Assembly (NCBI GenBank): GCA_947626225.1
Contig: CANQRH010000004.1
Coordinates: 62,001-126,000 of the forward strand
Source: Candidatus Gastranaerophilales bacterium
Lineage (GTDB): Bacteria > Cyanobacteriota > Vampirovibrionia > Gastranaerophilales > Gastranaerophilaceae
Direction of reading: 5' to 3'
DNA: 64,000 nucleotides
Below the pieces are notes generated by a model. That model worked only from the letters and a program-made list of their open reading frames with translations. It was not told where the DNA came from and ran no database searches. Shown in pieces: positions 5,366-57,601 of the stretch (the stretch's first letter is position 1; the number at the start of each line of letters is the position of its first letter). The position numbers and the translations under genes are program-made.

Positions 5366-6217
5366 ATGAATACATTAGGAATTAATCCGAATTTTCAGGG
5401 AAAACGGTCAAGAATTGATGACTATATTGCTTTAGACGATAGTGTATTATATCAGGAAGCATATTTACGCTCAGCCGCAAAATATGATTATAAAAAAGAT
5501 CGCAAAGTTACAAATGCCTTGTTTTATTCAGCTCCTGCAGCGGCAGGTTTGGCAGCTGTGATATTGAGTGAAAATTCCGCAACAAGGCTGTTTTCACACG
5601 AATTGTCAGGAATTGCGGGCAGAGCAGCAAAAGGCTTGAAAGTCGGTGCGTTATGGACTGCGGCATTGGCTAGTATTGATTTACTCGGATTTCTCAAGAA
5701 TAAATTGGCGCAAAACTCCTCTGAGGTTCGCAAATTTGACAAAGAACATCCTTTCATTTCTTTAGGATTACTTTTAGCGGCAGGCTTTGGAGCTATTGCA
5801 CTTGTAAATAAAGGTGCTGTTAAATTGAGCCAAATCAAGAAAACTCCGAAATTTTTGAAAAAAGGTACGGAAAAAGCCGCAAAATTTTTGAATACAAATA
5901 AACATATTGCTAAAGCGAAAAACAAGCTTGCAGAAATGGTTGGAAAAATGGCACCGTCTCTAAAGGATATCGGAGCAACCTTACTTGACTGGTCGCCGAC
6001 AATGCTGCTTTTGGGCGGTATGTTCCATTCTTTCGGCAGTGCAGGCAGACAAAACAGAGAATTTGTAAATAATTATAATCAGTTAAAAGAAAGACGTGAC
6101 CGAATTAAAGATGCAAGACTCTTGGAATTGCAGTTGCAAAATGACATGCTTATGCAGTTTGAAGACAATCAGGAAAGAATAAAACTCGTAAAAAATCCTT
6201 ATGCCGATTTGCCGTAG
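5366..6217 (+). CDS. Hypothetical membrane-associated protein with N-terminal INPNFQG motif
   Basis: The ATG at 5366 is chosen because GAAAGG lies eight bases upstream. The 283-residue protein begins MNTLGINPNFQGK, the same kind of N-terminal (N/S)F-x-G motif found at 32606, 37781 and 57293 in this window. Two or three hydrophobic stretches follow (APAAAGLAAVIL, ISLGLLLAAGFGAIALV, SPTMLLLGGMF), separated by basic regions, and the C-terminal 50 residues look like a charged coiled coil (QLKERRDRIKDARLLELQLQ). I do not recognise a family; it may be a lineage-specific envelope protein. It is monocistronic with its own promoter. Confidence 0.75.
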   Translation: MNTLGINPNFQGKRSRIDDYIALDDSVLYQEAYLRSAAKYDYKKDRKVTNALFYSAPAAAGLAAVILSENSATRLFSHELSGIAGRAAKGLKVGALWTAALASIDLLGFLKNKLAQNSSEVRKFDKEHPFISLGLLLAAGFGAIALVNKGAVKLSQIKKTPKFLKKGTEKAAKFLNTNKHIAKAKNKLAEMVGKMAPSLKDIGATLLDWSPTMLLLGGMFHSFGSAGRQNREFVNNYNQLKERRDRIKDARLLELQLQNDMLMQFEDNQERIKLVKNPYADLP

Positions 6218-16986: not shown

Positions 16987-18090
16987 TTAATTAATTTGTC
17001 TAAGTTCTATAACTTTTTTGTTTTTTTCAGCATAGTTTGATAATGTTTCTATTGCGTCTAAAGATTGTTCGGTTATAGCGTGTGCATATCTCATTGTTGT
17101 ATGAATATCGGAATGTCCTAATATATCTTTTACCATTGTTATAGGTACTCCCGCACCAACCATTCTTGTGGCTGATGTATGTCTTAAATCGTGAAATCTG
17201 AAATTTTCAATATTAGCTTTATTGCACAAAGAAACAAAAGACCTTTTTAAATCGCAGTAGCGTTTTTGTGTAATCGGATTAACAAATACATATTCACACA
17301 CTTTTTGCTTATGCGCTTCTTTTAATATGCTTCTAACTGTTGAATTAATTGGAATATATCTTTTTTTACCGTTTTTTGTATAAAGTAAGGTTATTTTATT
17401 GCTTTCAAAGTTAATACATTTCCAAGTCAGGCTCAATATTTCTTCTTTTCTCATGCCTGTATTTAAAGCAAATTGAATTATGGGTTTCATATATTCAAGA
17501 CGCCCTGAACACGCATTTATTAGTCTGATTTCTTCATCGGGAGTTAAATATCTTTCAAGTTTATTTTCTTGTCTTAGTTTAGTTATACCCTTGCATGGAT
17601 TTTTAGATAGCCAATTATTTTGGATTGCAAGATTAAACATTTTTCTCAAAACTTCTATATCTCTATTTATAGTTGTGTTTGAAATATATTTTGCAGGAAT
17701 TTTAACTCCGTCAACAATTTTTTCTTTTACTTTAATTTCTTTTTTGCGGTTAATTTTATATTTCTCAATGTCAATAGGTGAAATATCTTTTAATTGCTTA
17801 TTTCCCCACAGTTTTTCAAACTTATATGCTTTTGCTACATTCGTTTTATATGAGCGATGATTTGTTTTTGAATATTCAACATAAACATTTACAAGCTCTT
17901 TAAAAAGTTTACAGCCGATATTTTCAACAAGGTCTAATTTACCTCTTAAAAGGTCGGTTTTAAATGCGTTAAAATAAGTTTCCGCATCTCTTTTTGTAAC
18001 GGCTTCGGGAATTGCTCTATGATAGCGAACCCCTCTAATCATAGCTTCAAAATACCATTTTTTGCTTTTCTTGTTTTGATAAATGCTCAT
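16987..18090 (-). CDS. Tyrosine recombinase (phage-type integrase)
   Basis: The 367-residue protein has an N-terminal AP2-like arm-binding part (KSKKWYFEAMIRGVRYHRAIPEA), a core-binding domain and a catalytic domain. The catalytic residues are Arg in NTGMRKEE (near 210), HDLRH (near 300-304), LGHSDIHTT (near 324) and the nucleophile Tyr in MRYAH (near 335). It lies next to attL and reads toward it, the usual place for tRNA-targeting integrases. It catalyses integration into, and probably excision from, the tRNA-fMet gene. A four-base gap separates it from the upstream regulator. Confidence 0.95.
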   Translation of the reverse strand: MSIYQNKKSKKWYFEAMIRGVRYHRAIPEAVTKRDAETYFNAFKTDLLRGKLDLVENIGCKLFKELVNVYVEYSKTNHRSYKTNVAKAYKFEKLWGNKQLKDISPIDIEKYKINRKKEIKVKEKIVDGVKIPAKYISNTTINRDIEVLRKMFNLAIQNNWLSKNPCKGITKLRQENKLERYLTPDEEIRLINACSGRLEYMKPIIQFALNTGMRKEEILSLTWKCINFESNKITLLYTKNGKKRYIPINSTVRSILKEAHKQKVCEYVFVNPITQKRYCDLKRSFVSLCNKANIENFRFHDLRHTSATRMVGAGVPITMVKDILGHSDIHTTMRYAHAITEQSLDAIETLSNYAEKNKKVIELRQIN

Positions 18091-18094
18091 TTAA

Positions 18095-18310
18095 CTATTC
18101 CTTATCTTTGTTTGGTATGTAAGTTATAAAATCGGCAGGCATGAGATGTAAAACTTCGCACACTTTGTCTAATACATCACAATTAATAGTTGATACTCTC
18201 TGTTTAACAAATGCGTGTAATGTAGCATATCTAATGCCCGTCATTTCTGAAAGTTTATTTATTGAAATCTCTCTATCTGCAAGTATTAGTTTTAAATTAT
18301 TCTTAATCAT
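18095..18310 (-). CDS. XRE/Cro-type helix-turn-helix regulator, 71 aa
   Basis: This is a compact Cro/CI-like domain: LKLILADREISINKLSEMTGI (helices 1-2), YATLHAFVKQRVSTINCDVLDKVCEVLHLMPADFI (recognition helix and C-terminal helices). It is transcribed with the integrase and divergent from the gene at 18415, as repressors of small elements are. It probably controls the integrase and the rightward genes through the inverted repeat between them. Confidence 0.88.
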   Translation of the reverse strand: MIKNNLKLILADREISINKLSEMTGIRYATLHAFVKQRVSTINCDVLDKVCEVLHLMPADFITYIPNKDKE

Positions 18311-18336
18311 TTTTTATCTTTCTTATTGTAATTTGA

Positions 18337-18368
18337 TTTAATTTGATATATAATAAGTATAAATTAAA
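18337..18368. promoter_or_regulatory. Inverted repeat in the divergent intergenic region, candidate XRE operator
   Basis: TTTAATTT (18337-18344) and AAATTAAA (18361-18368) form an inverted repeat around a TATATAATA-rich centre that can hold -10 boxes. It lies between the XRE gene and the rightward operon. AT-rich context makes chance possible. Confidence 0.35.
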
Positions 18369-18414
18369 CTATTTATAGTATAAGATAAATTAAAAAATTT
18401 TGCAAGAGGTATAA

Positions 18415-19332
18415 ATGACAGATTCAACAAAATTGATTATCCAAATTAATGAATTACTAAGTAGTTCTGAATTAATAAATTGTACCTATATAGAAAATAT
18501 AATAGGCAAAATAGAGCATCTGAAAAATAGCAATACACAGTTTAAAAGAAAATTTAATAATCGACTATCCGGTTTTAAACAATTCAAAGCAACAGATAAA
18601 TATCAAAATGGGATGAAAGTATTATTTTATAACATAAAAAATCTTTATGATATTTTCAATTTAGCCATAAACATTTCAGACACTAACCCCGATGATTATG
18701 ATATTTACTTTTGCATGTTGTGGTTATATAAACAACTGCCTCTAAAAAGCAAAAATCTTTTAAATAAAAATGCAAGAATGGATAGTGTTTTTAATTTTTA
18801 TTACTCAATTATCAATTTTGCATATACCTCAATTCAACTTGACGAAGAAGATACAAATGCTAATAAAGAATTTAATTTAATGATTCTATCGATTAAAAAA
18901 GAAATGGATGATTATTCTGATTTTTATCTATATGAATTATACAAAAATGAAAATTTTGAAAAACAATCGGAATTTTTAAAGAAAGTCTTTTGCATTGTCC
19001 TTAACAATATTTTAAATTTAATAAAAAATGATATTAATTCTTCTAAAAAAGATAGAAAAATTGTAGTTAAATACAATATAGACTTAAAAACATTATTATT
19101 TGATAATTTAAAGTTAAAAAATTTAACAGATGCTGAATTTTTAATTGTTAAAAATATTTGCAATAATTTAAATGATTTAAGCACAAAATATAAATCAAAT
19201 ATATCAAAATTTAATAAGAAAATAAAAAATCTTTTATCTAACAATGAACAATTTATCTTATATGATAAAAACCAAGAGAAGTATGTTTTTAATATAGATA
19301 GTTTTGATATAATGAACCTAGAAATTAATTAA
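18415..19332 (+). CDS. Hypothetical element protein, 305 aa
   Basis: AAGAGG precedes the ATG. The protein is predicted all-helical and rich in Lys, Asn and Leu, with no signal peptide, membrane segment or recognised catalytic motif. Its codon use is strongly AT-biased like the rest of the element. The first gene rightward of the XRE repressor is often an early, regulated function in satellites and phages, but nothing in the sequence shows what this one does. Confidence 0.75.
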   Translation: MTDSTKLIIQINELLSSSELINCTYIENIIGKIEHLKNSNTQFKRKFNNRLSGFKQFKATDKYQNGMKVLFYNIKNLYDIFNLAINISDTNPDDYDIYFCMLWLYKQLPLKSKNLLNKNARMDSVFNFYYSIINFAYTSIQLDEEDTNANKEFNLMILSIKKEMDDYSDFYLYELYKNENFEKQSEFLKKVFCIVLNNILNLIKNDINSSKKDRKIVVKYNIDLKTLLFDNLKLKNLTDAEFLIVKNICNNLNDLSTKYKSNISKFNKKIKNLLSNNEQFILYDKNQEKYVFNIDSFDIMNLEIN

Positions 19333-19483
19333 TATTGGTTTCCATTAGGTTGCCAATCGGTTGTCAATTTAACTATAAAACCCTTGTTATTCAAGCTTTT
19401 TTAAATTGGCTACCAAGTATTTAAATTTTTTGGCACTTTGTTTTCTATTATTTTTTTGTAACAAAAAAATTAAGGAGAAAATT

Positions 19484-19687
19484 ATGGAAAAAAATTTAAA
19501 ATTATTGAATTGCAAAGAATTTGCGGAGCTTTTAGGCGTAAAAATCTCCACAGTTTATGTGTGGATCTGTAAAAAACAACTACCTGAGCGGATTTATAGA
19601 AAATTGGGTAGGAAACCAATTTTCATTCAATCCGAAGTCGAGTCTTGGATTTTAGAGGGCGCACAATTTATAAAAAAGGAGGCATAA
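19484..19687 (+). CDS. Helix-turn-helix (MerR/excisionase-like) DNA-binding protein
   Basis: The ATG at 19484 follows AAGGAG; 67 residues. KLLNCKEFAELLGVKISTVYVWICKKQLPERIYRKLGRKPIFIQSEVESWI is the winged-helix pattern of HTH_17/excisionase and AlpA-type proteins. It reads four bases before the replication gene. In integrated elements such proteins direct excision or activate the integrase. Which of the two applies is inference. Confidence 0.85.
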   Translation: MEKNLKLLNCKEFAELLGVKISTVYVWICKKQLPERIYRKLGRKPIFIQSEVESWILEGAQFIKKEA

Positions 19688-19690
19688 AAA

Positions 19691-21292
19691 ATGACAAATG
19701 CCTCTAGTAATTTAAGCTTGACCCTTATAAATAATATACCACAAGAAATAACAGGCTTTGAGCGATTTGTTGGATATAATTCAAATAAAATGCCAATCAA
19801 TTTGTATACAGGCAATAACGCAAGTATATCAAATCCAAGTACTTGGTGCGATTTTAGAACTGCAATCGAAAATATGGAAAAATTTAGGAATGCAATTGGT
19901 ATGGGCGTTGTTTTGGGCAATACTTCATTAGGTAAACTCTGTGGCATTGATATTGATTGTTGCATTGATGATGAGGGAAATATTGCAAAAGAAGTAAAAG
20001 AAATAATATCAGAAATTAACAGTTACACCGAATACTCCCCAAGCAAAAAGGGTGTTCATATTTTGTTATACGCAGAAAAAAAGACTCAAATATGTAAAAA
20101 TACAAGATTGGGATGGTGCAAAGCACTTGAAGTATACGATTTTGGTCGATATTTTACATTAACAGGCGATGTGATATATAGAAAATCAATTGAATATAGA
20201 CAAAAAGAACTTAATAAAATAGTTGATAAATATTTAATTACACCTAAAATGCAGAATAAAACGAGGATAGTGGCAAATCTTGAAAATGAAGCAATTAAAT
20301 CTGATGAAAAGTATTTCCGCATAGGACTTGAAAAAGACGAATATTTAAAAATTTTATATGAAGGAAAAAGACCGAACGGAAATGAAAGTGAAGACGATAT
20401 GGCGCTTTTATCTAAACTTTCTTTTTGGTGTAATGGAAATGAAAATTTAATAAAAGAAACTTTTTTAAATAGTCCGCATGCCTGTAGTAAAGATGAAAAC
20501 CACAGGAAAAAACTATGCAGAATTGATTATCTCGATAGAACACTTGAAAAAATCTCAAATTATGATTTTGCACGCCAACAAAATGAAAATTTCATTAGAA
20601 ATAATAAAAAAGAAGATGTAGTGCAAATATTGCAAACAGACAAGTTAAAGAACCTAATTAATGGTATATCTAGGGTTAATAATGAAAATGACATTGATTG
20701 GGTTGTAGAAAATGTCTTTGCACGAGATTATGTTTCAATATTTTTTGGTGAAGCAGGTAGCGGAAAAACTTGGCTAATTTTGGATTTAGCTATTGTTCTA
20801 AGTCATGGCGGTCTGCTATGGAACAATATTGAGGTTGAGCAGGCAAAAATTTTATTATTTGAAGGCGATACTCCGGTTTCTATGCTCAAAGAGCGCATTA
20901 ATAAACTAAATAAAACTGCCAATGACAATTTTTTTAGCTATGTAAGCAGATACCAAGCGGAAGAAGAAAACATAAACCTTGCTTTATCAACACAAGAAGG
21001 ACGTACCAATTTTGAAGAATTTATAAAATTAAATAAACCCGATTTAGTCATAGTTGATACCCTGATTTCGTTTATTGATGATGAAGTGGATGCAAAGAAC
21101 GTCAAACCTATTGTAGATTTTTTGCGCATTATAGCGAGCAAATATCACATTCACATAATTATTGTTCATCATTCAAGAAAGCGAGAAAGTGGCGAAAATA
21201 GAAGTAAACTTGACCAATCTGACGTAATAGGTAGTTCAATAATAACACGATTAGCAAGTATAGTAATAGGAGTTGATAAATATGCAGAATAA
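19691..21292 (+). CDS. Primase/polymerase-like plus RecA-type helicase replication protein, cut short by a frameshift
   Basis: The N-terminal half resembles small archaeo-eukaryotic primase-polymerase domains: GIDIDCCID (metal-binding Asp pair), YSPSKKGVHILLYAE and ALEVYDFGRYFTLTGD. The C-terminal half is a RecA-like ATPase (RepA/AAA_25 type) with Walker A GEAGSGKT near residue 354, Walker B LVIVDTL near 458 and HIIIVHHSRKR. The frame stops within the ATPase fold after VIGVDKYAE. The missing last strands continue in the next frame at 21273. It would replicate the excised element. Confidence 0.85.
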   Translation: MTNASSNLSLTLINNIPQEITGFERFVGYNSNKMPINLYTGNNASISNPSTWCDFRTAIENMEKFRNAIGMGVVLGNTSLGKLCGIDIDCCIDDEGNIAKEVKEIISEINSYTEYSPSKKGVHILLYAEKKTQICKNTRLGWCKALEVYDFGRYFTLTGDVIYRKSIEYRQKELNKIVDKYLITPKMQNKTRIVANLENEAIKSDEKYFRIGLEKDEYLKILYEGKRPNGNESEDDMALLSKLSFWCNGNENLIKETFLNSPHACSKDENHRKKLCRIDYLDRTLEKISNYDFARQQNENFIRNNKKEDVVQILQTDKLKNLINGISRVNNENDIDWVVENVFARDYVSIFFGEAGSGKTWLILDLAIVLSHGGLLWNNIEVEQAKILLFEGDTPVSMLKERINKLNKTANDNFFSYVSRYQAEEENINLALSTQEGRTNFEEFIKLNKPDLVIVDTLISFIDDEVDAKNVKPIVDFLRIIASKYHIHIIIVHHSRKRESGENRSKLDQSDVIGSSIITRLASIVIGVDKYAE

Positions 21293-21620
21293 CATGACTG
21301 GAATTTTAAGTATTAAAAAATCATGGTTTAAGCAATTTAAGCCTTTAAAATTTACCTTAAAAGATATTGATGAAAATTACATAGAAATACAGTTTGATGA
21401 ATACGAAGAACTTAGATACAAAGCACAACAAGCTGAAAAATCAATATTAGAATATCTATCTGAAAATCAAATTAAAACTTTTACAAGAAAAGATATAGAG
21501 CAAGAATTAAAAAATGAACATTCAATAACATCTATAAAAAAAGCTCTTTCGACAATGATAGATAAAAGCATTATAGTAGCTGAAGGAACAACAAAAGATA
21601 GATTATATAAAGTTCTATAG
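21273..21620 (+). CDS. C-terminal part of the replication helicase, separated by a frameshift
   Basis: It overlaps the preceding frame at 21273-21292. The first part (MTGILSIKKSWFKQFKPLKFTL) looks like the last beta strands of the RecA-like domain. The rest (SILEYLSENQIKTFTRKDIEQELK..SITSIKKALSTMIDKSIIVAEG) is a winged-helix domain usual at the end of such helicases. Removing one T in GAATAAC (21289-21295) fuses the two parts in frame as AENMTG. It could also be translated alone from the TTG or an internal ATG. Whether this is a mutation, a sequencing error or programmed is open. Confidence 0.65.
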   Translation: MINMQNNMTGILSIKKSWFKQFKPLKFTLKDIDENYIEIQFDEYEELRYKAQQAEKSILEYLSENQIKTFTRKDIEQELKNEHSITSIKKALSTMIDKSIIVAEGTTKDRLYKVL

Positions 21621-21751
21621 TGTATAAAAATAAACCAAATAGTCCTAAGGCTTTCTATAAACCGTATTTTAATTTGGTTAATCATAATTAACCAAATTAA
21701 ATACTTGTTATTATTGAAATACAGTTTATTTGGTCTAAATATACAGGTGTG

Positions 21752-22033
21752 CTACATTTTCAAATAGCCATCAATTTTATTACACATATCAGGGTTTGTG
21801 ATATTTAAGTCAATTTGTTCTTTTGATTCAATGGATTTTCTTTTTGGATAGATATAATTCATCAAATCAAGATTAACCTTAACTTTTATATCAATCGGAG
21901 TTTTATTACTTTGCACAATATTCAAAAGAGCTTCTAACGGGCTATAATCACCCATAAGCTCAATAATTTCTTTTGTTTTTTTATTCGGTGTACCTTTTTG
22001 ACGACCGCCTGTTTTATTGCCGTATTTATCCAT
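21752..22033 (-). CDS. Phage-type small protein with GGRQKGTPNKKT start (terminase-small-subunit-like?)
   Basis: The 93-residue protein starts MDKYGNKTGGRQKGTPNKKTKEI and has a helical middle and the block NLDLMNYIYPKRKSIE. This G-R-x-K-G-x-x-N-K-x-T plus YxYPKRK-x-x-E pattern is common in small phage proteins encoded near DNA packaging or replication genes. I cannot assign terminase function firmly. It reads on the opposite strand to the replication gene. Confidence 0.65.
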   Translation of the reverse strand: MDKYGNKTGGRQKGTPNKKTKEIIELMGDYSPLEALLNIVQSNKTPIDIKVKVNLDLMNYIYPKRKSIESKEQIDLNITNPDMCNKIDGYLKM

Positions 22034-22104
22034 ATAACAATTATAGCATTGTGTATGGTAGTCTATTTTTATCTACTTTAGATAATTATTTATTTATAAA
22101 CCAA

Positions 22105-22245
22105 TTAAATTACCTGTTTTAAATCATTAAGCATATTATAGAAAACTTTAGGAGCAGAGCCATATCCAGCATAAAACTCCTCACAAGCATAGTGAATTAA
22201 ATAGCAGTTGCCGTTTTTAAGAAATTCTTTTAGTTTATTATCCAT
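22105..22245 (-). CDS. Small hypothetical protein, 46 aa
   Basis: The reverse-strand ORF starts MDNKLKEFLKNGNCYLIHYACEEF and ends NMLNDLKQVI; an in-frame ATG three codons upstream (22254) would add MVC. The sequence is well mixed and amphipathic, with aromatic residues, which is unusual for a chance AT-rich ORF. No clear ribosome binding site is visible. It lies between two minus-strand element genes. Function unknown; it may be a truncated protein. Confidence 0.4.
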   Translation of the reverse strand: MDNKLKEFLKNGNCYLIHYACEEFYAGYGSAPKVFYNMLNDLKQVI

Positions 22246-22303
22246 ACATACCATGCTAACACAATTAAAGCTTATTACGTAATGTCTTTTTATAATACCT
22301 ATA

Positions 22304-22633
22304 TTATTTTAAAACCTTAATTGTTTTAATAATTTTCAAGTATGCGTCTATTTCTTTTGATGATGAGAGGTAAATTTCTTTTATCAGTTCATCTCTTTTA
22401 GGATTTTTAAGCTCTGTGGAGCTGATACCAAATTCTAATAAGGAAACATTTAAAACATCTAATAGCTTTAAAAAACTATTTAATACCGGCGTTTGTAAGC
22501 CTCTTTCAATATTGCTTAAATTTTTTTCGGACATACCGATTTTTTCAGATAATTCAGCTTGTGTTAAATTTGCTTTTTCTCTTAGTTGTTTAATTTTTTT
22601 CCCGATAAATTTTTTATCATCATAAAGAACCAT
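22304..22633 (-). CDS. XRE-type regulator divergent from the Type III R-M operon
   Basis: The N-terminal HTH_3 domain is clear: IGKKIKQLREKANLTQAELSEKIGMSEKNLSNIERGLQTPVLNSFLKLLDVLNV (residues about 10-64). A charged helical tail of about 40 residues follows. It is divergent from mod, and the 189-bp space between them carries repeated candidate operator motifs. By position it could act like a controller (C) protein of restriction systems or as the element's second repressor. Confidence 0.88.
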   Translation of the reverse strand: MVLYDDKKFIGKKIKQLREKANLTQAELSEKIGMSEKNLSNIERGLQTPVLNSFLKLLDVLNVSLLEFGISSTELKNPKRDELIKEIYLSSSKEIDAYLKIIKTIKVLK

Positions 22634-22635
22634 GG

Positions 22636-22703
22636 TTATTATTCCTTATTATTAATTCAAAATTACCTTATAAATAATGACTTAATAACCTTATGAATAA
22701 TAA
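22636..22703. promoter_or_regulatory. Repeated ACCTTAT-AATAAT motifs, candidate operators of the XRE regulator
   Basis: ACCTTATAAATAATGA (22665-22680) and ACCTTATGAATAATAA (22688-22703) are direct repeats 23 bp apart. A related sequence in inverse orientation (TTATTATTCCTTATTATT, from 22636) lies closer to the XRE gene. Confidence 0.45.
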
Positions 22704-22769
22704 TTTAATTAAATAATAGAAATATATAATACTATTTATAATTTTTATGGTATCATGCTCATGTTTTAT

Positions 22770-22792
22770 AATACTTTTTTTTAAAAAGTATT
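22770..22792 (+). promoter_or_regulatory. Hairpin in the leader of mod
   Basis: AATACTTTTT and AAAAAGTATT form a 10-bp perfect stem with a 3-base loop, 30 bases before the mod start. It has no T-tail on the plus strand after the stem, so it is more likely a leader structure or protein site than a terminator. Confidence 0.35.
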
Positions 22793-22822
22793 GTTTATGA
22801 GAAAAAGATAAAGGCGGTAAAG

Positions 22823-23941
22823 TTGGAAAGTTTGATTGAACAGCTTCCTAAAATTGTAGAGGAAGGTAAAAAAGAAGTAGAAAAGATTATGGAACGCTTA
22901 GAAAGCGAAAACCATATCGGATTGCAAACTAATGAATTTGTTTTGCCTATTAGAAAAGAGGCAAATTTATTCAGAGGTAAATATCAAGAAATAGATGGAC
23001 AAAATTGGTTTAATAGACTTTGTTACGGAGACAATCTGCTTGTTATGCAGGCGCTTTTGTCGGGTGACGAAGCGGCAGGTTTACCTTCAATGAGAGGCAA
23101 AATCGATTTAATTTATATTGACCCGCCTTACGACTCCAAAGCGGATTACAGAACAAAAATAACCCTTCCTGACTTGGATTTAGAGCAAAAACCAAATGTA
23201 ATGGAACAGTTTGCGTATGCTGATTTATGGAACAAAGGGACCGTCAGCTATCTGAAAAGTATGTATCCGAGATTGTATTTGATGAGAGAACTTCTTGCTC
23301 TCAACGGAATTTTTTATATCCATTTGGATTGGCATGCCTGTCATTACGTTAAAATAATGTTGGATGACATATTCGGCAAAGAAAATTTTAGGAATGAAAT
23401 AATCTGGAAATATACAGGCTCGCTTCAACCCCAAAAAGATTTTGCACGAAAACACGACGTTATATATAGATATTCAAAATCGGCAGATTATATTTATCAT
23501 CCCGATTTAATTCCTTACAGCGAAAATTCCATAAACAGATTTGACAAAGAGGACGAAAACGGCAGATTTAAAATAACATATCGGGACGGAAAAGAATATA
23601 AAACATATATGAAAAAAGGGAAACCCATAGAAGATGTTTGGATTGACAAAATCGAAACAGACATTATGGAAATTCCAATAGTTATGAAAAATTCTTCCGA
23701 GTTTATGGGATATGATACTCAAAAGCCCGAAAAGTTATTAGAACGAATAATAAAAGCCTCATCTAACGAAAATTCAATAGTAGCAGACTTCTTTGCCGGT
23801 TCCGGCACAACGGGGGGCCGTTGCGGAAAAACTCGGCAGACGCTGGATAATGTCAGATTTCGGGAAACCCGCAACAATGATTATGAGAAAAAGACTTATC
23901 GACAACGAGGCAAAACCATTTTTATATCAAGCAATAGGTGA
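22823..23941 (+). CDS. mod: Type III modification methyltransferase (Mod), N-terminal part before a frameshift
   Basis: It starts at TTG (AAGGCGG six bases upstream). The order of motifs is that of beta-class adenine methyltransferases: catalytic DPPY ([13 protein letters not shown], near residue 99) first, then SAM-binding FAGSGTTG near residue 324. After TTG the frame runs into unrelated sequence ([13 protein letters not shown]...) and stops at 23941. The true continuation ([10 protein letters not shown]) lies in another frame from the G6 tract at 23812-23817. In this form the gene lacks its C-terminal third and is probably off. Confidence 0.85.
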
Positions 23942-24734
23942 CTATCAAAAAGAAGTTTTTGCCTCAACAAAAGAATTCAAAAGAATTGGTGATTTATCGC
24001 AGGTTGTTTTAAACTTATTTGGGGCAATTCCATTTTTTGATGAAAATTCACCAAAAAATTTAGGGCAATTAAAAGGTTCAAGAACTCTTGTATATGTTGA
24101 TAGTCCTAAAAAAATGACAGGTGCAGCAACAATTAAAAAAGCTCTTGAACTAAAAGAAAGTTTTATGGGCGGATGGAATAAGGTTATAATTTTAGGCTGG
24201 AATTTTGCTTTTGATATAGCAAATATTTTGAAAGATATTGACCGCAATAAATTAGAAGTTTTGGTTATTCCGCCCGATTTATTAACTAAACTATCTAAAA
24301 ACAGCAGTTATCAACAACTCTTAAAAACAGGAGCAATAAGATTTTCAACACTTCAATATCTGACGATAAAAGAACCTAAAATAAACCCATATTCAAGCAA
24401 TGTCGAAGAACTGGAAGTTGAACTGGATAATTACGTACTTTTATCCCCAGATGCTCTTCCTTTAGATGATAAATATAAAGCAAAATTATCAGAGCTTATT
24501 GCAAAAGACCCTCTGGCACTTATTGAATATTGGAGTATTGACCCTGATTATGACGGGGAAACTTTTAGAAGCAAATGGCAGGATTATAGAGAAAATATTG
24601 CAAATGATGGCGATCCTTTAAGAGTAGTAAGGAAAGCGATAATCCAAGTACCCTGTAAAGATAATCGACAGATTTGTGTCAAAGCAGTTGATGTATTCGG
24701 CTTTGAAAGTATTGTAGTAAAGGAGGTATCTTAA
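23793..24734 (+). CDS. mod: Type III Mod, C-terminal part after the frameshift
   Basis: The meaningful sequence begins at about 23815 with [21 protein letters not shown], the usual continuation of FAGSGTTG in these methyltransferases. The remaining ~300 residues match the C-terminal half of a Mod subunit (about 636 residues in total if fused), including the linker [22 protein letters not shown]. The nearest internal ATG is 23850. One G fewer in the G6 tract restores a single frame. It is followed by res after one base. Confidence 0.75.
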
Positions 24735-24735
24735 A

Positions 24736-27639
24736 ATGTCAACATTATTAAATACAGGAACAAAAGATATCCCTTTAAAATTTGCTTCACAACTTTCAAA
24801 CATAGTAAATCAAGAGTGGGAAAGCGGAAGCTTTATCGAAAAGGTTACCCCGATTACACAAGATTTGTTAAGGTATTGGTTTAATCCTGTTTTTTGTGAA
24901 AGAACAATAAATTTTCATGCAGGACAAAAACAAGCAATTCTAAATGCAATATATTGTCATGAAATTTTAAAAACAGATTCAATATTATCAATGTATCAAC
25001 AAGCAAGCGAGGATTTATTAGCACCTGACTTTTTTAATTATATAAAGGATGATAAATACAATCATCCGAAATATTGCGTTAAAATGGCAACGGGAACAGG
25101 TAAAACATTTGTTTTAAACGCACTTTTAATATGGCAATATCTAAATGCTAAATATATGGAAAATATCAATGAAGTTAAATTTAGCAAAAACTTTTTACTT
25201 GTCGCTCCGGGTTTAATTGTTTATGAAAGATTATTAGATGCTTTTTTAGGAAAAGAAAAAGAAGATAGAACAAGAGATTTTGAGACCTCGGACATAAAAA
25301 GAAATGTTGATTTGTTTATTCCCGAAAGATATCGTCAAACTGTTTTCAATTTTGTGCAAAATAATGTAGTAAAAAAGGATGAAATAGGTAGAAAAATTAC
25401 AGGTGAGGGATTAATTGCAATAACAAATTGGCATTTATTGTCAGGTGAAAATGAAGATGAAGAAGATAATATTGAAGTATCACCACTTGAAAATCCTGAA
25501 AAAACAGTAAAAGAGTTATTACCGATAACGCCGGGGCTTACGGCAGGACATGATTTAAATACTATTGATAACAGATATTTAAACGGTGATGAAATAAATT
25601 ACTTGAAATCATTGCCTGATATTTGTGTATTCAATGATGAAGCACACCACATCCATGAAAATAAACAAAATGGTATTATACAAGAAGTTGAATGGCAAAA
25701 ATCTTTAAATTATATATCAGAAAACAAGAAAAGAAATTTTATACAAATAGATTTTTCTGCCACACCTTTTGATGTCACAGGCTCGGGTCAAAAAAGAACA
25801 AAACATTATTTTCCGCATATAATTGTAGATTTTGACTTAAAAGAAGCCATAACAAAAGGGTTAGTTAAGACCATTGCAATAGATAAAAGAAAAGAAATTG
25901 CAACAATAGAAAACGAAAATCTTGATTTTAAAGCAGTAAGAGATGGAAACAATGTCATAGGATTATCAGACGGGCAAAGATTAATGCTAAGAGCCGGTCT
26001 TGAGAAAATGCGCATATTAGAAGAAGAATTTACTAAAACAGATAAGAATAAACATCCAAAAATGCTAATTATGTGTGAAGATACAAAAGTTTCACCGTTT
26101 GTTTGTGAATTTTTAGAACAAGAAGGCTTAGCACAAGATGATATTATGCGAATTGATTCCGATAAACAAGGTTCTGTTAAACCTGATGAATGGTTAAATA
26201 TAAAACAAAAATTGTTCAATATAGATAAAACATCGAGCCCGAAAGTTATTGTATCCGTTTTAATGTTAAGAGAAGGGTTTGACGTATCAAATGTATGCGT
26301 AATAGTTCCGCTTCGGTCATCTCAAGCCCCTATCCTACTAGAACAAACAATAGGTCGAGGATTAAGACTTATGTGGAGAGAACATGATTATGATGATATT
26401 AAAGCGGAAAATCTTAGAAAAATGCTTATCGACAAACAAAGTCCTCAAAATTATCTTGACATATTGAGTATCATTGAACATCCTGCATTTATACAATTCT
26501 ACGATAATTTAGAAAGCGGAATGATTGTAGAAGAAAAAGATATGCCAAAAAGAGAAAATATCTTGGGCGATATTATAAATGTCGAACTAAAAGAAAACTA
26601 TAAAGATTATGACTTTTATATACCTCGTATTATTTGCGATAAAGAAGAGATATTAACTCTCAGTAATATAAATTGCAGTAATATGAATAAATTCAGTTGG
26701 ACACTTGAACAACTAAAACAAATAATTAAAAATTATGGCAGTGAATGTTTTTATTCAGAAGAAATAACTGCAAAAACTCGTTTTGGAGATTATAGAATAT
26801 CGCAGCAATTATTTAATGCAAATAGCTACAATGAGTTTTTATCAAGATTATTGCAGGCTGTAACAAACAATTTAACAAAAGCAGGCGGACATTCTTCATT
26901 CCCTGTTATGCAGATAAATCAAGTATCACTTGTTAAAGTAATAGACGATTACATAAGAACAAAACTGTTTAATCAAGTGTTTGACCCTTATCTTGATGAC
27001 AATTGGAGAGTTTTAATGATAGCTCGCACAGGAATTATTGAACATATCATGAAAGAAATATCAACTTCCTTATATGAAATGCAAAACAATGTATCAGTAA
27101 TTGATGCGGTTGTTAAAAAAGAATATTTTTCACAAGTTGAAACATTAAAAATGAGAGGAAATTTTGCTCTGGATATAAGAAAATCAATTTATGAAAAAAC
27201 CCAGTACCCATCTAATAAAGGCGAATTTGAAAAAGAGTTTTTATTGTTTGCAGATAAAGACAGTGAAGTAGAACGGCTTTTAAAAATAAACGAAAACTAT
27301 CATACTTTTGCTCATATCAGATATATAAGAACAGATGGGCTTTTATCCTCTTATTATCCTGATTTTATATTAAAAATTGGTACAAATATATATTTTGCAG
27401 AAACAAAATCTCAAAAAGATGTAAATGACCTAAACGTAAAGCAGAAACAAATAAGTGCAATTGATTTTTGCAAAAAAATCAATGAACTTCCGGACGAAAA
27501 CAGGATGCATAGCAATTGGTATTATTCAATACTTGATGATACAACTTTTTATACAATGAAAGATAAAGGTGCAAATACAAAAGACTTGCTTGAATATTGC
27601 AAAATAACAAACGCCAAAATATATGGACGGTTATTTTAG
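24736..27639 (+). CDS. res: Type III restriction enzyme subunit (Res): SF2 translocase with PD-(D/E)xK nuclease
   Basis: The 967-residue protein has Walker A (MATGTGKT, near 117), the DEAH-type box NDEAHH (near 300), motif III SATP (near 341), motif VI region LLEQTIGRGLRLM and a C-terminal nuclease motif YYPDF-x14-AETKSQ (PD...ExK, near 874-890). This matches Type III Res, which cuts DNA as a complex with Mod after ATP-driven long-range communication between inversely oriented sites. AAAGGAGGT precedes the ATG at 24736, one base after the mod stop. The frame is intact. With mod shifted, Res should be inactive because it depends on Mod for target recognition. Confidence 0.93.
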   Translation: MSTLLNTGTKDIPLKFASQLSNIVNQEWESGSFIEKVTPITQDLLRYWFNPVFCERTINFHAGQKQAILNAIYCHEILKTDSILSMYQQASEDLLAPDFFNYIKDDKYNHPKYCVKMATGTGKTFVLNALLIWQYLNAKYMENINEVKFSKNFLLVAPGLIVYERLLDAFLGKEKEDRTRDFETSDIKRNVDLFIPERYRQTVFNFVQNNVVKKDEIGRKITGEGLIAITNWHLLSGENEDEEDNIEVSPLENPEKTVKELLPITPGLTAGHDLNTIDNRYLNGDEINYLKSLPDICVFNDEAHHIHENKQNGIIQEVEWQKSLNYISENKKRNFIQIDFSATPFDVTGSGQKRTKHYFPHIIVDFDLKEAITKGLVKTIAIDKRKEIATIENENLDFKAVRDGNNVIGLSDGQRLMLRAGLEKMRILEEEFTKTDKNKHPKMLIMCEDTKVSPFVCEFLEQEGLAQDDIMRIDSDKQGSVKPDEWLNIKQKLFNIDKTSSPKVIVSVLMLREGFDVSNVCVIVPLRSSQAPILLEQTIGRGLRLMWREHDYDDIKAENLRKMLIDKQSPQNYLDILSIIEHPAFIQFYDNLESGMIVEEKDMPKRENILGDIINVELKENYKDYDFYIPRIICDKEEILTLSNINCSNMNKFSWTLEQLKQIIKNYGSECFYSEEITAKTRFGDYRISQQLFNANSYNEFLSRLLQAVTNNLTKAGGHSSFPVMQINQVSLVKVIDDYIRTKLFNQVFDPYLDDNWRVLMIARTGIIEHIMKEISTSLYEMQNNVSVIDAVVKKEYFSQVETLKMRGNFALDIRKSIYEKTQYPSNKGEFEKEFLLFADKDSEVERLLKINENYHTFAHIRYIRTDGLLSSYYPDFILKIGTNIYFAETKSQKDVNDLNVKQKQISAIDFCKKINELPDENRMHSNWYYSILDDTTFYTMKDKGANTKDLLEYCKITNAKIYGRLF

Positions 27640-32054: not shown

Positions 32055-32606
32055 TTATTCTTTCATCATTGCGGAGTACAATTCTTGCGGTGTGTTTTTG
32101 GTTATTATTTTATTTTCTTTGAAAAAATCATCAAACATGCCGTTAATCCTGTAATACTCATTTAATGCGTTCTTAACCCGTATTAAGTGTTCGGGCAAAT
32201 CGTCTTCTTTTTTGCTTGATTTAAATATCTTAAAAATATTTTTTAATTTTGCCTTCATCCCGGTTTTTACCGAAATTACGTTTGTGCAGGCATCAGTAAA
32301 ATCTTGTACTGTTTTCCCCGATATTATATAAATGCTGTCGTCAAGTTTTGGTATATTTACTCCAAAATTTTTGGCATTGGTATAAAGCCAATCAAGTGAA
32401 CCGTGACAAAAGTCTGCAATTGTTTCTAATGCAGATTTTAACGCAATATCTTGCGGCATGCCTTTCAATAATAATGCTACCGGTTGTCTTTTTGAAAAAC
32501 GATAAGGCGGGATGACATATTTTGCAATCAGTTCTTCGTAATTTTGTTTACTCGGGATTTTATATAGTCCTTTAAAATTTGTGTCACTAATATTTGTTAT
32601 TTGCAT
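32055..32606 (-). CDS. Hypothetical protein with N-terminal TNFKG motif
   Basis: The 183-residue protein begins MQITNISDTNFKGLYKIPSK, one of four proteins here with an N-terminal F-x-G motif. The rest looks globular and helical, with a Lys-rich segment near residue 115 and no membrane segment. I do not recognise a family. It is convergent with the flavodoxin gene and has no operon partner. Confidence 0.65.
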   Translation of the reverse strand: MQITNISDTNFKGLYKIPSKQNYEELIAKYVIPPYRFSKRQPVALLLKGMPQDIALKSALETIADFCHGSLDWLYTNAKNFGVNIPKLDDSIYIISGKTVQDFTDACTNVISVKTGMKAKLKNIFKIFKSSKKEDDLPEHLIRVKNALNEYYRINGMFDDFFKENKIITKNTPQELYSAMMKE

Positions 32607-34508: not shown

Positions 34509-36668
34509 ATGACAGACCAAATGAATGTAGGCGGACAAGACAACGGTTTTAATATTCGCAAATTGAATGGCGGTATTAAACGTTCCGATTTGAAAGATCA
34601 AAAATTGGGATTAATTTTTGACAAGCTTGACACGGACAAAAATAAAATACTGACTCAGGATGAGATTCAGGCATTTATCATCGAAGAAAACATGAAAGCA
34701 ATGATTGCAGATAATGTTGTGGACAGCACGGAAGCTGAAGCGTTTGTTCAACAGCGCGGTTTGCAGGAAGAAGTCGGTAAAGAAGAAGTATTTAAATTTT
34801 TGGAGCAGCTTGGTGTGTTATCGGATAAGATTGAGAAATCCGAGGAACTTACGACTCAGGACGGAACCGAATTAATATCGGTTCAATACAAACCGGATGA
34901 GAACAATGCAAAATTGACGCAGTATTTTACTAAAGATGCCGGAGTTTTGTATGCTGATTCCAAAGAAGATGAAAACGGTGCATTAACAAGATATTTTGAT
35001 GAAAGCGGAAAAGTTATACAGTCCGTTCAAACCGATAAATCAGGTACAAACACATCTATTAAGTACGATGCAGACGGTAAGCAAACTTCAAAAACCGTAT
35101 TTAAAGGAGCCGTAACTGAATTTTACGGTGCCGATGATAAATTGTTAAAACAGGTTACGGACAAAGGTAACGGTGTAACTGAAACCGTTGAATATGAATA
35201 TGACGCGGAAGGAAACTTAAAAACCACCACAACTACAAACCCTAACGGTACAAAGACTGTGAAAGATGAAGCTACGGGTGAAGAACACAGGATTGATGCC
35301 GAAGGAAAGCCTATTTCCGATGAACCCGATAATCAACCCGTTAATCAACCCGATACTAAAACGGCATTGAATGAAAAACTGGCAAAAGGCAATGTAAAAG
35401 CCCAAATTGACGGCACAGCAACAGGTTTGACAAGTAAGACTTATGAAGGTACAATCAGACTTCCCAGAGGCGGTCAGGTTGAAGAAGGTAAATTCCCTGA
35501 AACTCTGATGATGTCATTACATTCAGCATACGGTGAAGGTGCTCAGATGAGGCTTAAACTTGTTGATCCCGAAAACGGTATTTACGAATCCTCGGCACAT
35601 GACAGACAATTCCAAGTTTCTGTTGATGGTGAAGGCAATGTTTCAGTAAAATCGGTTAATGTTGAGGGGCTAAAGGATAAATTAGATGCAAATTTAGCAA
35701 GTTATCGTAAGGCTGCGGAAAAGAAAGATGAAGCGCCGGAAGCACCTGATGCGCCCGAAGCACCTGATGCGCCGGAAGCACCCGATGCACCCGAAGCACC
35801 CGAAGCGCCGGAAGCACCTGAAGCACCGGAAGTTACCGAAGAACAGCGTGCGGCAATAGAGGATGATGTCAAAGCTCTTGAGCCCACATTGAATTATGCA
35901 TCATATAATGAAGAATTGCAGTATAAAGCGACTGCTATTGAAAACGGAAAAAAAGACGGTTACAAATTAGCGAATCAATTGGCAGAAAAATTGGAGAATA
36001 AGTTGACAGGGTATTTTTCTGTAAAATCGTTACTCAAGCAAATCACGCCTGATAACTTCCCTTATGTATATGAAAGAATCCCTGATCTGGACGGTAAGGT
36101 TGATAACATTTTGGGACTTGATTATGATGATTATAAGGAAATAATCTCACCTGTATTACATGAAAGTGCCAAGAAAGCCGGTTTTGATTGGGAGAGCAAA
36201 CTGGACAGGGTAAAAATTGCAGAAGGCATACGTGCTAAAAATGAAGAAACTATAGCTGACGCCAAACAAGATATCAAAGATACGCATGAATTCAACGCTA
36301 AGCTTGACAAAATCAAAGCCGAAAAGGAAAGTATAAAAGCGGCTAATACCGTATTGGCTGAAGTTGCAAATACGGAACACCCTGAAGTTGTAAAAGGAAC
36401 AGATAGTGCCGGAGTTTCTTATGAACAAGTTGTCTTGGAAGACGGTCGTAAGGTTCAAGTTTACCGCGATGATGAAGAACATATAAATGACGTATATATA
36501 TATTTCAAAGAAGATGAAAGCGGCAAAGGACTACGTTATACCAGTTATGATATGGCCGTGGTAAATGATAACAAATTTCAAGTAAGTATTGGTGACAGAC
36601 ACAATTGGGATAAAATACTTGAACTGGTCAACAAAATCTTTGGTGAAACGGCGCCTGCCGAAGAATAA
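34509..36668 (+). CDS. Large EF-hand/YD-repeat-like protein with Ala-Pro-Glu linker, 719 aa
   Basis: AAAAGGAG precedes the ATG. An EF-hand loop DTDKNKILTQDE at residues 41-52 has calcium-binding residues at positions 1, 3, 5 and 12. Residues about 110-270 hold YD-like repeats (RYFDESGKVIQSVQTDKSG, EYEYDAEGNLKTT). Residues about 409-441 are a repeated (A-P-E/D) linker, followed by a helical C-terminal part. No signal peptide or membrane segment is seen. The family is not recognised. Calcium-binding and repeat parts suggest a structural or surface role, but export is unproven. A terminator follows. Confidence 0.8.
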   Translation: MTDQMNVGGQDNGFNIRKLNGGIKRSDLKDQKLGLIFDKLDTDKNKILTQDEIQAFIIEENMKAMIADNVVDSTEAEAFVQQRGLQEEVGKEEVFKFLEQLGVLSDKIEKSEELTTQDGTELISVQYKPDENNAKLTQYFTKDAGVLYADSKEDENGALTRYFDESGKVIQSVQTDKSGTNTSIKYDADGKQTSKTVFKGAVTEFYGADDKLLKQVTDKGNGVTETVEYEYDAEGNLKTTTTTNPNGTKTVKDEATGEEHRIDAEGKPISDEPDNQPVNQPDTKTALNEKLAKGNVKAQIDGTATGLTSKTYEGTIRLPRGGQVEEGKFPETLMMSLHSAYGEGAQMRLKLVDPENGIYESSAHDRQFQVSVDGEGNVSVKSVNVEGLKDKLDANLASYRKAAEKKDEAPEAPDAPEAPDAPEAPDAPEAPEAPEAPEAPEVTEEQRAAIEDDVKALEPTLNYASYNEELQYKATAIENGKKDGYKLANQLAEKLENKLTGYFSVKSLLKQITPDNFPYVYERIPDLDGKVDNILGLDYDDYKEIISPVLHESAKKAGFDWESKLDRVKIAEGIRAKNEETIADAKQDIKDTHEFNAKLDKIKAEKESIKAANTVLAEVANTEHPEVVKGTDSAGVSYEQVVLEDGRKVQVYRDDEEHINDVYIYFKEDESGKGLRYTSYDMAVVNDNKFQVSIGDRHNWDKILELVNKIFGETAPAEE
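35733..35831 (+). repeat. In-frame repeat coding for the Ala-Pro-Glu/Asp linker
   Basis: Nine-base units of the type GC(G/A)-CC(N)-GA(A/T) are repeated eleven times, giving EAPDAPEAP-type sequence. Such tracts can expand or contract by slippage without breaking the frame. Confidence 0.85.
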
Positions 36669-37103: not shown

Positions 37104-37781
37104 TCAGGAATAATTTGTGTTAATAATTTGGTCTAATATCAGTTTCATATTTTGTACACCCGAATTTATGTAATACGAATCGTGTAATATCGCTGATACT
37201 TTATTCATTATATTAGCAATATATTTTTTTTCTTTTCCCGTTGCAGTTCCGTCATCAACCTTGTCTAAAATTTCACTGAGCTTATCGTCCATGACTGTGT
37301 AATTCTTTCCGTAAATATTAAGATTTTCGTCCGTACCAAATAAGTAATTGCCCAATGATTCATTATATATCGGACAGTATTCGGATAATCCTGAATTTAA
37401 ATAATTACGGTCGGTTTTAAAGTCATCGGGCTTCTTGTTTAATATTTTCTTAATTAACTTTTGTATAAATCCGATTATCTCGGAATTCTTCGGGGTTAAA
37501 TATATATCACAACCGTTGAGTTTCAGGGATATAATATATTTGTTGGGGCGTATTTGGGCAGTTTCAAACTCAATGTTTACAAAACTCGGATATAATTCAT
37601 TGTTCAAATCGGGATAAGTTTTAAGAAGCTTATCGTATTCATTCAAATCATTGCCGTATTTGTCATTTGTTAATTCCATGTTCAAACACAAGCGCGAATG
37701 ATACGGCTCATCTTCAATGTCGTTAACTTTTGCGTAACTTATATTTTTTATGCCTTGGAAACTTACGGGATTTATTCTCAT
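37104..37781 (-). CDS. Hypothetical protein with N-terminal INPVSFQG motif, 225 aa
   Basis: It begins MRINPVSFQGIKNISYAK, a clear case of the N-terminal (N/S)F-x-G motif shared by four proteins here. The remainder looks globular (beta strands such as NVEFETAQIRPNKYIISLKLNG, then helices) with no membrane segment. Not recognised. A single gene, divergent from the membrane protein gene at 37922. Confidence 0.7.
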   Translation of the reverse strand: MRINPVSFQGIKNISYAKVNDIEDEPYHSRLCLNMELTNDKYGNDLNEYDKLLKTYPDLNNELYPSFVNIEFETAQIRPNKYIISLKLNGCDIYLTPKNSEIIGFIQKLIKKILNKKPDDFKTDRNYLNSGLSEYCPIYNESLGNYLFGTDENLNIYGKNYTVMDDKLSEILDKVDDGTATGKEKKYIANIMNKVSAILHDSYYINSGVQNMKLILDQIINTNYS

Positions 37782-57292: not shown

Positions 57293-57601
57293 ATGAAGAT
57301 TTTACCGATAAATCAAAGTTTTACAGGATCGTTTCTTGATAAAATTCATGATAAAACAAAAAATTATGCGGATATGACCGATACAATTGTTGTTCCGCGC
57401 ACGATATTTAAAGGATATCTCGGGATAATGACAGGTACAACGCTGGTTACTCTCGGCGGGGTTATAAATAAAGTTAAGCACCCGAAATCTTTCAAAGCTT
57501 TAATGATTAGCGGACTTTTGGCATCTTTATACGGAACGTGGGCATTTGTCCGTCCGTTTGTTGTAAAAGACATTAATGGTGTTTCAAAAACTAACGGGTG
57601 A
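57293..57601 (+). CDS. Small membrane protein with N-terminal INQSFTG motif, 102 aa
   Basis: AGGAG lies five bases before the ATG at 57293. It begins MKILPINQSFTGSFLDKIHD, the fourth example of the N-terminal (N/S)F-x-G motif. Two hydrophobic segments follow (GIMTGTTLVTLGGVI and ALMISGLLASLYGTWAFV). The last 18 bases overlap the convergent radA gene. Family not recognised. Confidence 0.7.
   Translation: MKILPINQSFTGSFLDKIHDKTKNYADMTDTIVVPRTIFKGYLGIMTGTTLVTLGGVINKVKHPKSFKALMISGLLASLYGTWAFVRPFVVKDINGVSKTNG

What the first reader, a model, noticed from the sequence alone, without database searches (positions are those of the whole stretch)
5366..5404. A shared N-terminal (N/S)F-x-G motif on four unrelated proteins
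Proteins starting at 5366 (MNTLGINPNFQGK), 32606 (MQITNISDTNFKG), 37781 (MRINPVSFQG) and 57293 (MKILPINQSFTG) differ in length, fold and membrane content. All begin with a short hydrophobic/Ile-Asn stretch followed by (N/S)-F-(Q/K/T)-G at residues 7-13. None has a signal peptide in front of it. A motif fixed at the N-terminus of otherwise different proteins suggests a targeting, processing or secretion tag specific to this lineage.
Basis: seen in the sequence. Interest (0 to 1): 0.72.

Follow-up and report, generated by a model that had tools for sequence, protein, structure and literature searches.

The report
N-terminal F-x-G address tag, Gastranaerophilales
Four otherwise unrelated proteins in this gut-bacterium genome begin with the same short disordered 'address label' (M-x-I ... 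[N/S]-F-x-G); the label recurs on many proteins across the lineage and may mark them for export, possibly through a leftover flagellum-type secretion machine.

Summary
All four N-termini are as quoted, the proteins are unrelated to each other, and none has a signal peptide in front of the motif. The motif recurs on unrelated proteins across the genome and family (Gastranaerophilales, non-photosynthetic Cyanobacteriota). In 1,376 sampled genes a refined tag occurs 11 times, against 1.2 in shuffled N-termini; in 350 other cyanobacterial genes 0 against 0.4. The bare (N/S)FxG is enriched only 2-4-fold; the full form is M-x-[I/V], an N/S/P/Q-rich spacer nearly free of E and L, then [N/S]-F-polar-[G/A]. 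In the 37781 family (17-35% identity) F and G are two of only four invariant residues, although they lie in a low-confidence tail outside the folded domain, and synonymous codons vary. So it is a protein-level docking tag. Tagged proteins include usually extracytoplasmic kinds (5'-nucleotidase, M16 peptidase, metallophosphoesterase) without signal peptides. The lineage keeps a flagellum-type export apparatus (FliEFH, FlhA, FliPQR, rod proteins; FlhB in a sister genome) although the flagellar-type FlhA is missing from this genus. Best explanation: an export signal, most likely for that type III apparatus. The tag is well supported; the machine is inferred.

The parts
5366..5404 (+). N-terminal tag MNTLGINPNFQGK of the 283-aa protein
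   Evidence: same-genus orthologs start MQ[IV]Sx[IV]xP[NS]FxG[RK]; F10 and G12 at least 90% conserved
5366..6217 (+). 283-aa tagged protein, no Pfam or PHROG family; helical body with hydrophobic segments
   Evidence: found in 21 of 23 same-genus relatives at 43-57% identity; AF2 residues 1-8 pLDDT below 50 (whole model only 62)
32568..32606 (-). N-terminal tag MQITNISDTNFKG
32055..32606 (-). 183-aa tagged protein, no Pfam family
37752..37781 (-). N-terminal tag MRINPVSFQG
   Evidence: in 19 family members F8 and G10 are two of only four invariant columns
37104..37781 (-). 225-aa tagged protein of a paralogous family (several copies in some genomes); alpha/beta body, no clear structural relative
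   Evidence: (pLDDT 87; residues 1-4 below 50, residues 1-10 mean 55; first strand from residue 11)
57293..57328 (+). N-terminal tag MKILPINQSFTG
   Evidence: a Shine-Dalgarno-like AGGAG lies just upstream of the start
57293..57601 (+). 102-aa tagged protein with a moderately hydrophobic segment near residue 70

Best explanation
The motif is a short, disordered N-terminal sorting signal: M-x-[I/V], an N/S/P/Q-rich spacer that avoids E and L, then [N/S]-F-polar-[G/A]. It is carried by some tens of unrelated proteins per genome (estimate from sampling). It most likely acts as a type III-style export signal. The unfolded N-terminus would be read by the cytosolic side of the lineage's non-flagellar, flagellum-derived export apparatus (FlhA/FlhB/FliPQR with FliE/F/H and rod proteins), with F-x-G as the docking point, and the cargo would then be exported. 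SHOWN: the tag, its conservation and position outside the fold, the kinds of cargo, and the retained apparatus. INFERRED: that the tag and the apparatus belong together, which component reads the tag, and where the cargo goes.
For: Enrichment at N-termini, none in the cyanobacterial controls. F and G at least 90% conserved in one family and invariant in another at 17-35% identity, with synonymous codons varying. Tag outside the folded body. Spacer composition N 3.0x, S 2.0x, P 2.4x, Q 1.8x, L 0.25x, E 0.05x of other N-termini, similar to what is known of type III signals. Cargo of usually extracytoplasmic kinds with the tag instead of a signal peptide: 5'-nucleotidase L085:10368, metallophosphoesterase L078:1881, M16 peptidase L160:675. 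Export apparatus: FlhA, FliF and FliH, FliP, FliQ/FliR, rod proteins, FlhB in sister genome G018. FHIPEP matches in 39 of 39 relatives, while the higher-scoring flagellar-type FlhA is missing in the window's genus. Tagged genes sit beside FliR (L151, L155), FlhB (L085) and near rod genes (L152); density near apparatus loci is 2.8-fold (p 0.034).
Against: The proximity signal is weak: p 0.034 for FxG but 0.107 for FxG/A, some loci are orthologous, and the window's own genome shows little of it. Families of the class outside the order that also have FHIPEP genes show no NFxG excess, so the apparatus is not sufficient for the tag. Some tagged proteins have a hydrophobic, signal-peptide-like stretch after the tag (L051:2363, L013:19294), which a type III substrate would not need. 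No type III ATPase was found in the sampled parts of the window's family. No secretion data exist.
Confidence: 0.45

Rival explanations
1. The tag is a short linear motif that brings proteins to a partner other than the export apparatus, such as a scaffold, envelope anchor or unknown exporter. It is a real sorting tag, but not a type III signal.
For: Tag, position outside the fold and conservation are equally explained. Proteins with internal hydrophobic segments carry it too. FHIPEP-bearing families outside Gastranaerophilales lack the excess.
Against: Several cargo enzymes are of kinds that usually act outside the cytoplasm, and the spacer composition resembles type III signals. No candidate partner was identified.
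Confidence: 0.33
2. The tag is an N-terminal extension that modifies Sec-dependent export, like the extended signal-peptide regions of autotransporters: a tag first, then a weak signal peptide.
For: L051:2363 (and the similar L074:14922) and L013:19294 have a Lys-containing stretch, a hydrophobic stretch and A-x-A-like residues about 20-30 residues after the tag.
Against: Most listed tagged proteins, including three of the four in the window, have no strong hydrophobic stretch at all.
Confidence: 0.08
3. The tag is a regulated-turnover signal (N-terminal degron read by a Clp adaptor).
For: It is short, N-terminal and probably disordered.
Against: It sits on a wide range of large enzymes and accessory families; no housekeeping regulator was seen among convincing hits.
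Confidence: 0.06
4. Chance, or a common structural N-terminus such as the NF[K/R]G strand of SMC/RecF/OLD ATPases, picked out by eye.
For: The bare [NS]F.G is only 2.1-fold enriched. The in-frame fraction of DNA-pattern hits was not significantly higher in the family than outside (p 0.23). Weak SMC/GajA matches to the 37781 model.
Against: Invariance within a divergent family; the P-loop pattern is absent from all four window proteins; the best GajA match starts at model residue 11, after the motif, with Z 4.4; shuffles give 1.2 against 11 seen.
Confidence: 0.08

Closest known systems
N-terminal secretion signals of type III (injectisome and flagellar) substrates
   Same: Short, N-terminal, outside the fold; rich in S/N/P/Q and poor in L/E; on unrelated proteins; genome has a flagellum-type export apparatus
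   Different: Known signals usually lack a fixed sequence; this one has an almost invariant F-x-[G/A]. Export is not shown
Conserved export or translocation motifs of particular injectisomes (Salmonella SPI-2 WEK motif, from my own knowledge; Xanthomonas HpaB-dependent motif, PMC6638074, seen in abstract only)
   Same: Lineage-specific sequence motif near the N-terminus shared by unrelated cargo
   Different: Different residues and lineage; no chaperone known here; no host delivery shown
Partial flagellar gene sets of gut Melainabacteria (PMC3787301; PMC4040986)
   Same: Same lineage and gene set: basal-body and export genes without filament, cap or L/P rings in some genomes
   Different: Read there as genome reduction or loss; here the retained set is proposed to be a working exporter with its own tagged cargo
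Filament-less flagellar basal bodies of Buchnera (own knowledge)
   Same: Flagellum reduced to an export structure
   Different: No tagged cargo described there to my knowledge; unrelated lineage

Membership tests
Type III secretion substrate with N-terminal signal | N-terminus outside the fold, S/N/P/Q-rich and poor in L/E | tested here: met
   (composition partly conditioned by how tags were picked)
Type III secretion substrate with N-terminal signal | Genome encodes a type III export apparatus | tested here: met
   FliE (homology to L147), FliF, FliH, FlhA, FliP, FliQ, FliR and rod proteins in the window's genome; FlhB seen only in G018
Type III secretion substrate with N-terminal signal | Substrate genes cluster with apparatus genes | tested here: inconclusive
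   7/271 against 12/1288, p 0.034 (FxG); p 0.107 (FxG/A)
Type III secretion substrate with N-terminal signal | Tag present only where the apparatus is present | tested here: inconclusive
   pattern hits against reversed control: f1 54:11, f2-f7 25:15, other FHIPEP-bearing families 18:17, f28/f33 without FHIPEP 9:14
Type III secretion substrate with N-terminal signal | Signal-dependent secretion | not testable with these tools
   needs experiment
Sec signal peptide protein | Hydrophobic core within the first 35 residues | tested here: not met
   for the four window proteins; some other tagged proteins have one later
Type IV prepilin | Processing site G/A-F-T-L-x-E followed by a hydrophobic helix | tested here: not met
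   sequences: motif order is F-x-G and no hydrophobic helix follows; a prepilin-like protein, L143:6019, looks different
SMC/RecF/OLD ATPase N-terminus | Walker A P-loop | tested here: not met
   no G-x4-GK[ST] in the four window proteins

The most novel reading that the evidence does not exclude
Gastranaerophilales that lost swimming kept and repurposed a second, flagellum-derived type III apparatus as a general exporter, and evolved a near-fixed N-terminal address code (M-x-I...[N/S]-F-x-G) that sends tens of unrelated enzymes and lineage-specific proteins through it.
Probability: 0.4. Interest if true: 0.82.

Novelty: new variant of a known kind. Interest (0 to 1): 0.62.

Why it matters
Type III signals are notoriously free of sequence motif; a near-invariant F-x-G signal would allow cargo to be listed directly from sequence. 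It would also turn the incomplete flagellar gene sets of gut Melainabacteria, so far read as decay, into a working secretion route, and would give a first candidate list of exported proteins for a common but poorly cultured gut lineage.

Tried and rejected
Bare F.G counts by position: no visible excess, since F.G is common. De novo enrichment of short gapped words in 415 N-termini did not find the motif; hydrophobic and Lys words dominate. DNA-pattern scan: excess over the reversed control in the family (54:11), but the in-frame share did not differ from outside (19/54 against 7/33, p 0.23). Testing whether 5'-nucleotidase paralogs have signal peptides where the tag is missing: loci could not be cut. 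Structure of the 5366 family: low confidence (62), not searched. Structure of the 37781 protein: best Foldseek E 0.05 and best Z 4.4 (GajA/SMC heads), starting after the motif; not taken as a relationship. Pfam, NCBIfam and PHROGs know no family for the four window proteins above cut-off. No paper found on type III secretion or such a tag in this lineage in the held library.

Full report
OBSERVATION. The four N-termini are exactly as quoted, at the stated starts. The proteins are 283, 183, 225 and 102 aa, share no detectable similarity, have no Pfam, NCBIfam or PHROG family above cut-off, and have no hydrophobic core in the first 35 residues. The window is positions 62001-126000 of contig 4 of a 1.59 Mb, 95% complete genome; its relatives include records named Candidatus Gastranaerophilales and Candidatus Melainabacteria.

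IS IT MORE THAN CHANCE? I took stretches of the genome (856 kb with the window) and of relatives, called genes with a hexamer/start script of my own, and counted. The bare [NS]F.G is only 2.1-fold up. A refined form gives 11 against 1.2 in shuffled N-termini of 1,376 genes (p 6e-8; against internal Met positions p 0.003), and 0 against 0.4 in the other cyanobacteria. The refinement was partly made on the same data, so these p-values are optimistic. In loci of other named MAGs the tag turns up on further families, but one search's count still contained members of the 5366 family and a MANPIL family that looks like chance, so I do not use its p-value.

CONSERVATION. The stronger proof is within families. 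5366 family: 19 aligned members, 43-57% identity; F10 and G12 at least 90% conserved, start MQ[IV]Sx[IV]xP[NS]FxG[RK]; one member lost the motif. 37781 family: 19 members, 17-35% identity to the first; invariant columns are F8, G10, N13 and N89 only. The F position shifts from 6 to 10 while F-x-G stays, and synonymous codons vary, so selection acts on the protein. AlphaFold2 gives the 37781 body pLDDT 87, with residues 1-4 below 50 and the first ten averaging 55; the first strand begins at residue 11. The 5366 model is poor overall (62) but among its lowest at residues 1-8. Conserved residues in a probably disordered tail point to a docking motif.

ANATOMY. In 31 hand-picked tags F lies at residue 8-23; F-1 is S or N in 21; F+1 is mostly K, T, Q, N or S; F+2 is G in 23 and A in 8. 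The spacer is enriched in N (3.0x), P (2.4x), S (2.0x) and Q (1.8x), and nearly lacks E (0.05x) and L (0.25x). These numbers are partly conditioned by the picking.

CARGO. Recognisable tagged proteins are a 5'-nucleotidase (L085:10368), a metallophosphoesterase (L078:1881), an M16 peptidase (L160:675), an EF-hand protein (L013:19294), a weak dual-specificity phosphatase match (L042:14933) and a weak GH13-like match (L018:5506). Several of these kinds usually work outside the cytoplasm (established knowledge), yet here they start with the tag. Most others are lineage-specific. Two or three have a signal-peptide-like stretch after the tag.

THE CANDIDATE MACHINE. The genome has FliF and FliH beside a full FlhA (L143/L052), FliP, FliQ and FliR (L149), a FliE homolog (L143) and four rod-type genes (L150). 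FlhB was seen in sister genome G018 (L085). All 39 relatives searched have FHIPEP matches. The window's genus carries only the about 730-bit FlhA and a short C-terminal paralog (about 160 bits), whereas other families also carry an 860-890-bit FlhA, which in G029 lies in a flagellar-type FlhB/FliRQP cluster. In the window's family this second type is patchy (34 non-matching genomes were not listed there, and G123 and G199 lack a full FlhA match). Earlier papers saw incomplete flagellar sets in this group and read them as loss or reduction (PMC3787301, PMC4040986). I found no paper that links them to secretion or to a tag. No type III ATPase was found in the sampled part of the window's family; G029 has one in the equivalent operon.

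LINK. Tagged genes lie next to FliR in G018 and G006, beside FlhB in G018, and near rod genes in G018. Density is 7/271 near apparatus loci against 12/1288 elsewhere (p 0.034; with F-x-A included p 0.107), with non-independent orthologs. Across lineages the pattern excess over the reversed control is 54:11 (f1), 25:15 (f2-f7), 18:17 (other FHIPEP-bearing families), 9:14 (families f28 and f33 without FHIPEP) and 33:16 (other cyanobacteria) (summed by me from the tables). So the tag follows Gastranaerophilales, not the apparatus as such.

VERDICT. Tag: real, conserved, lineage-linked, protein-level (about 0.9). Export through the retained type III apparatus: the best single explanation, unproven (0.45). 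A real tag with another reader is the main rival (0.33).

Noticed in passing
L051:15111-16571 (own genome C3:175147-176163); homologs across the relatives: A separate gene of about 490 aa carries only the C-terminal (cytosolic) part of FlhA behind an unfamiliar N-terminal domain; it is widespread in the order and could be a substrate receptor.
   Followed up: partly
window 34509-36668 and L150:14771-17227: Two large proteins (719 and 818 aa) share a different N-terminal module, 'LN.GIK.SDLK...LF.KLD.D', that looks like an EF-hand; the window copy also has an RHS-repeat match.
   Followed up: no
window 16987-27639: Integrase, small regulators, an AAA ATPase, an N6/N4 DNA methylase and a type III restriction helicase: a likely mobile island with a restriction-modification system.
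   Followed up: partly
L052:1050-2072, L045:15107-15787, L147:7871-9405: Proteins in the FliG position of the operon ('FDYKGFA..L..QA...IP') that Pfam does not recognise; at least two paralogs in the window's genome.
   Followed up: partly
L094:7753, L151:17954, L155:11711: A tagged family (MISSVS..[NS]F[RK]G) with a strong hydrophobic segment near residue 65 lies within a few kb of FliPQR in three genomes: a candidate translocator or structural substrate.
   Followed up: partly
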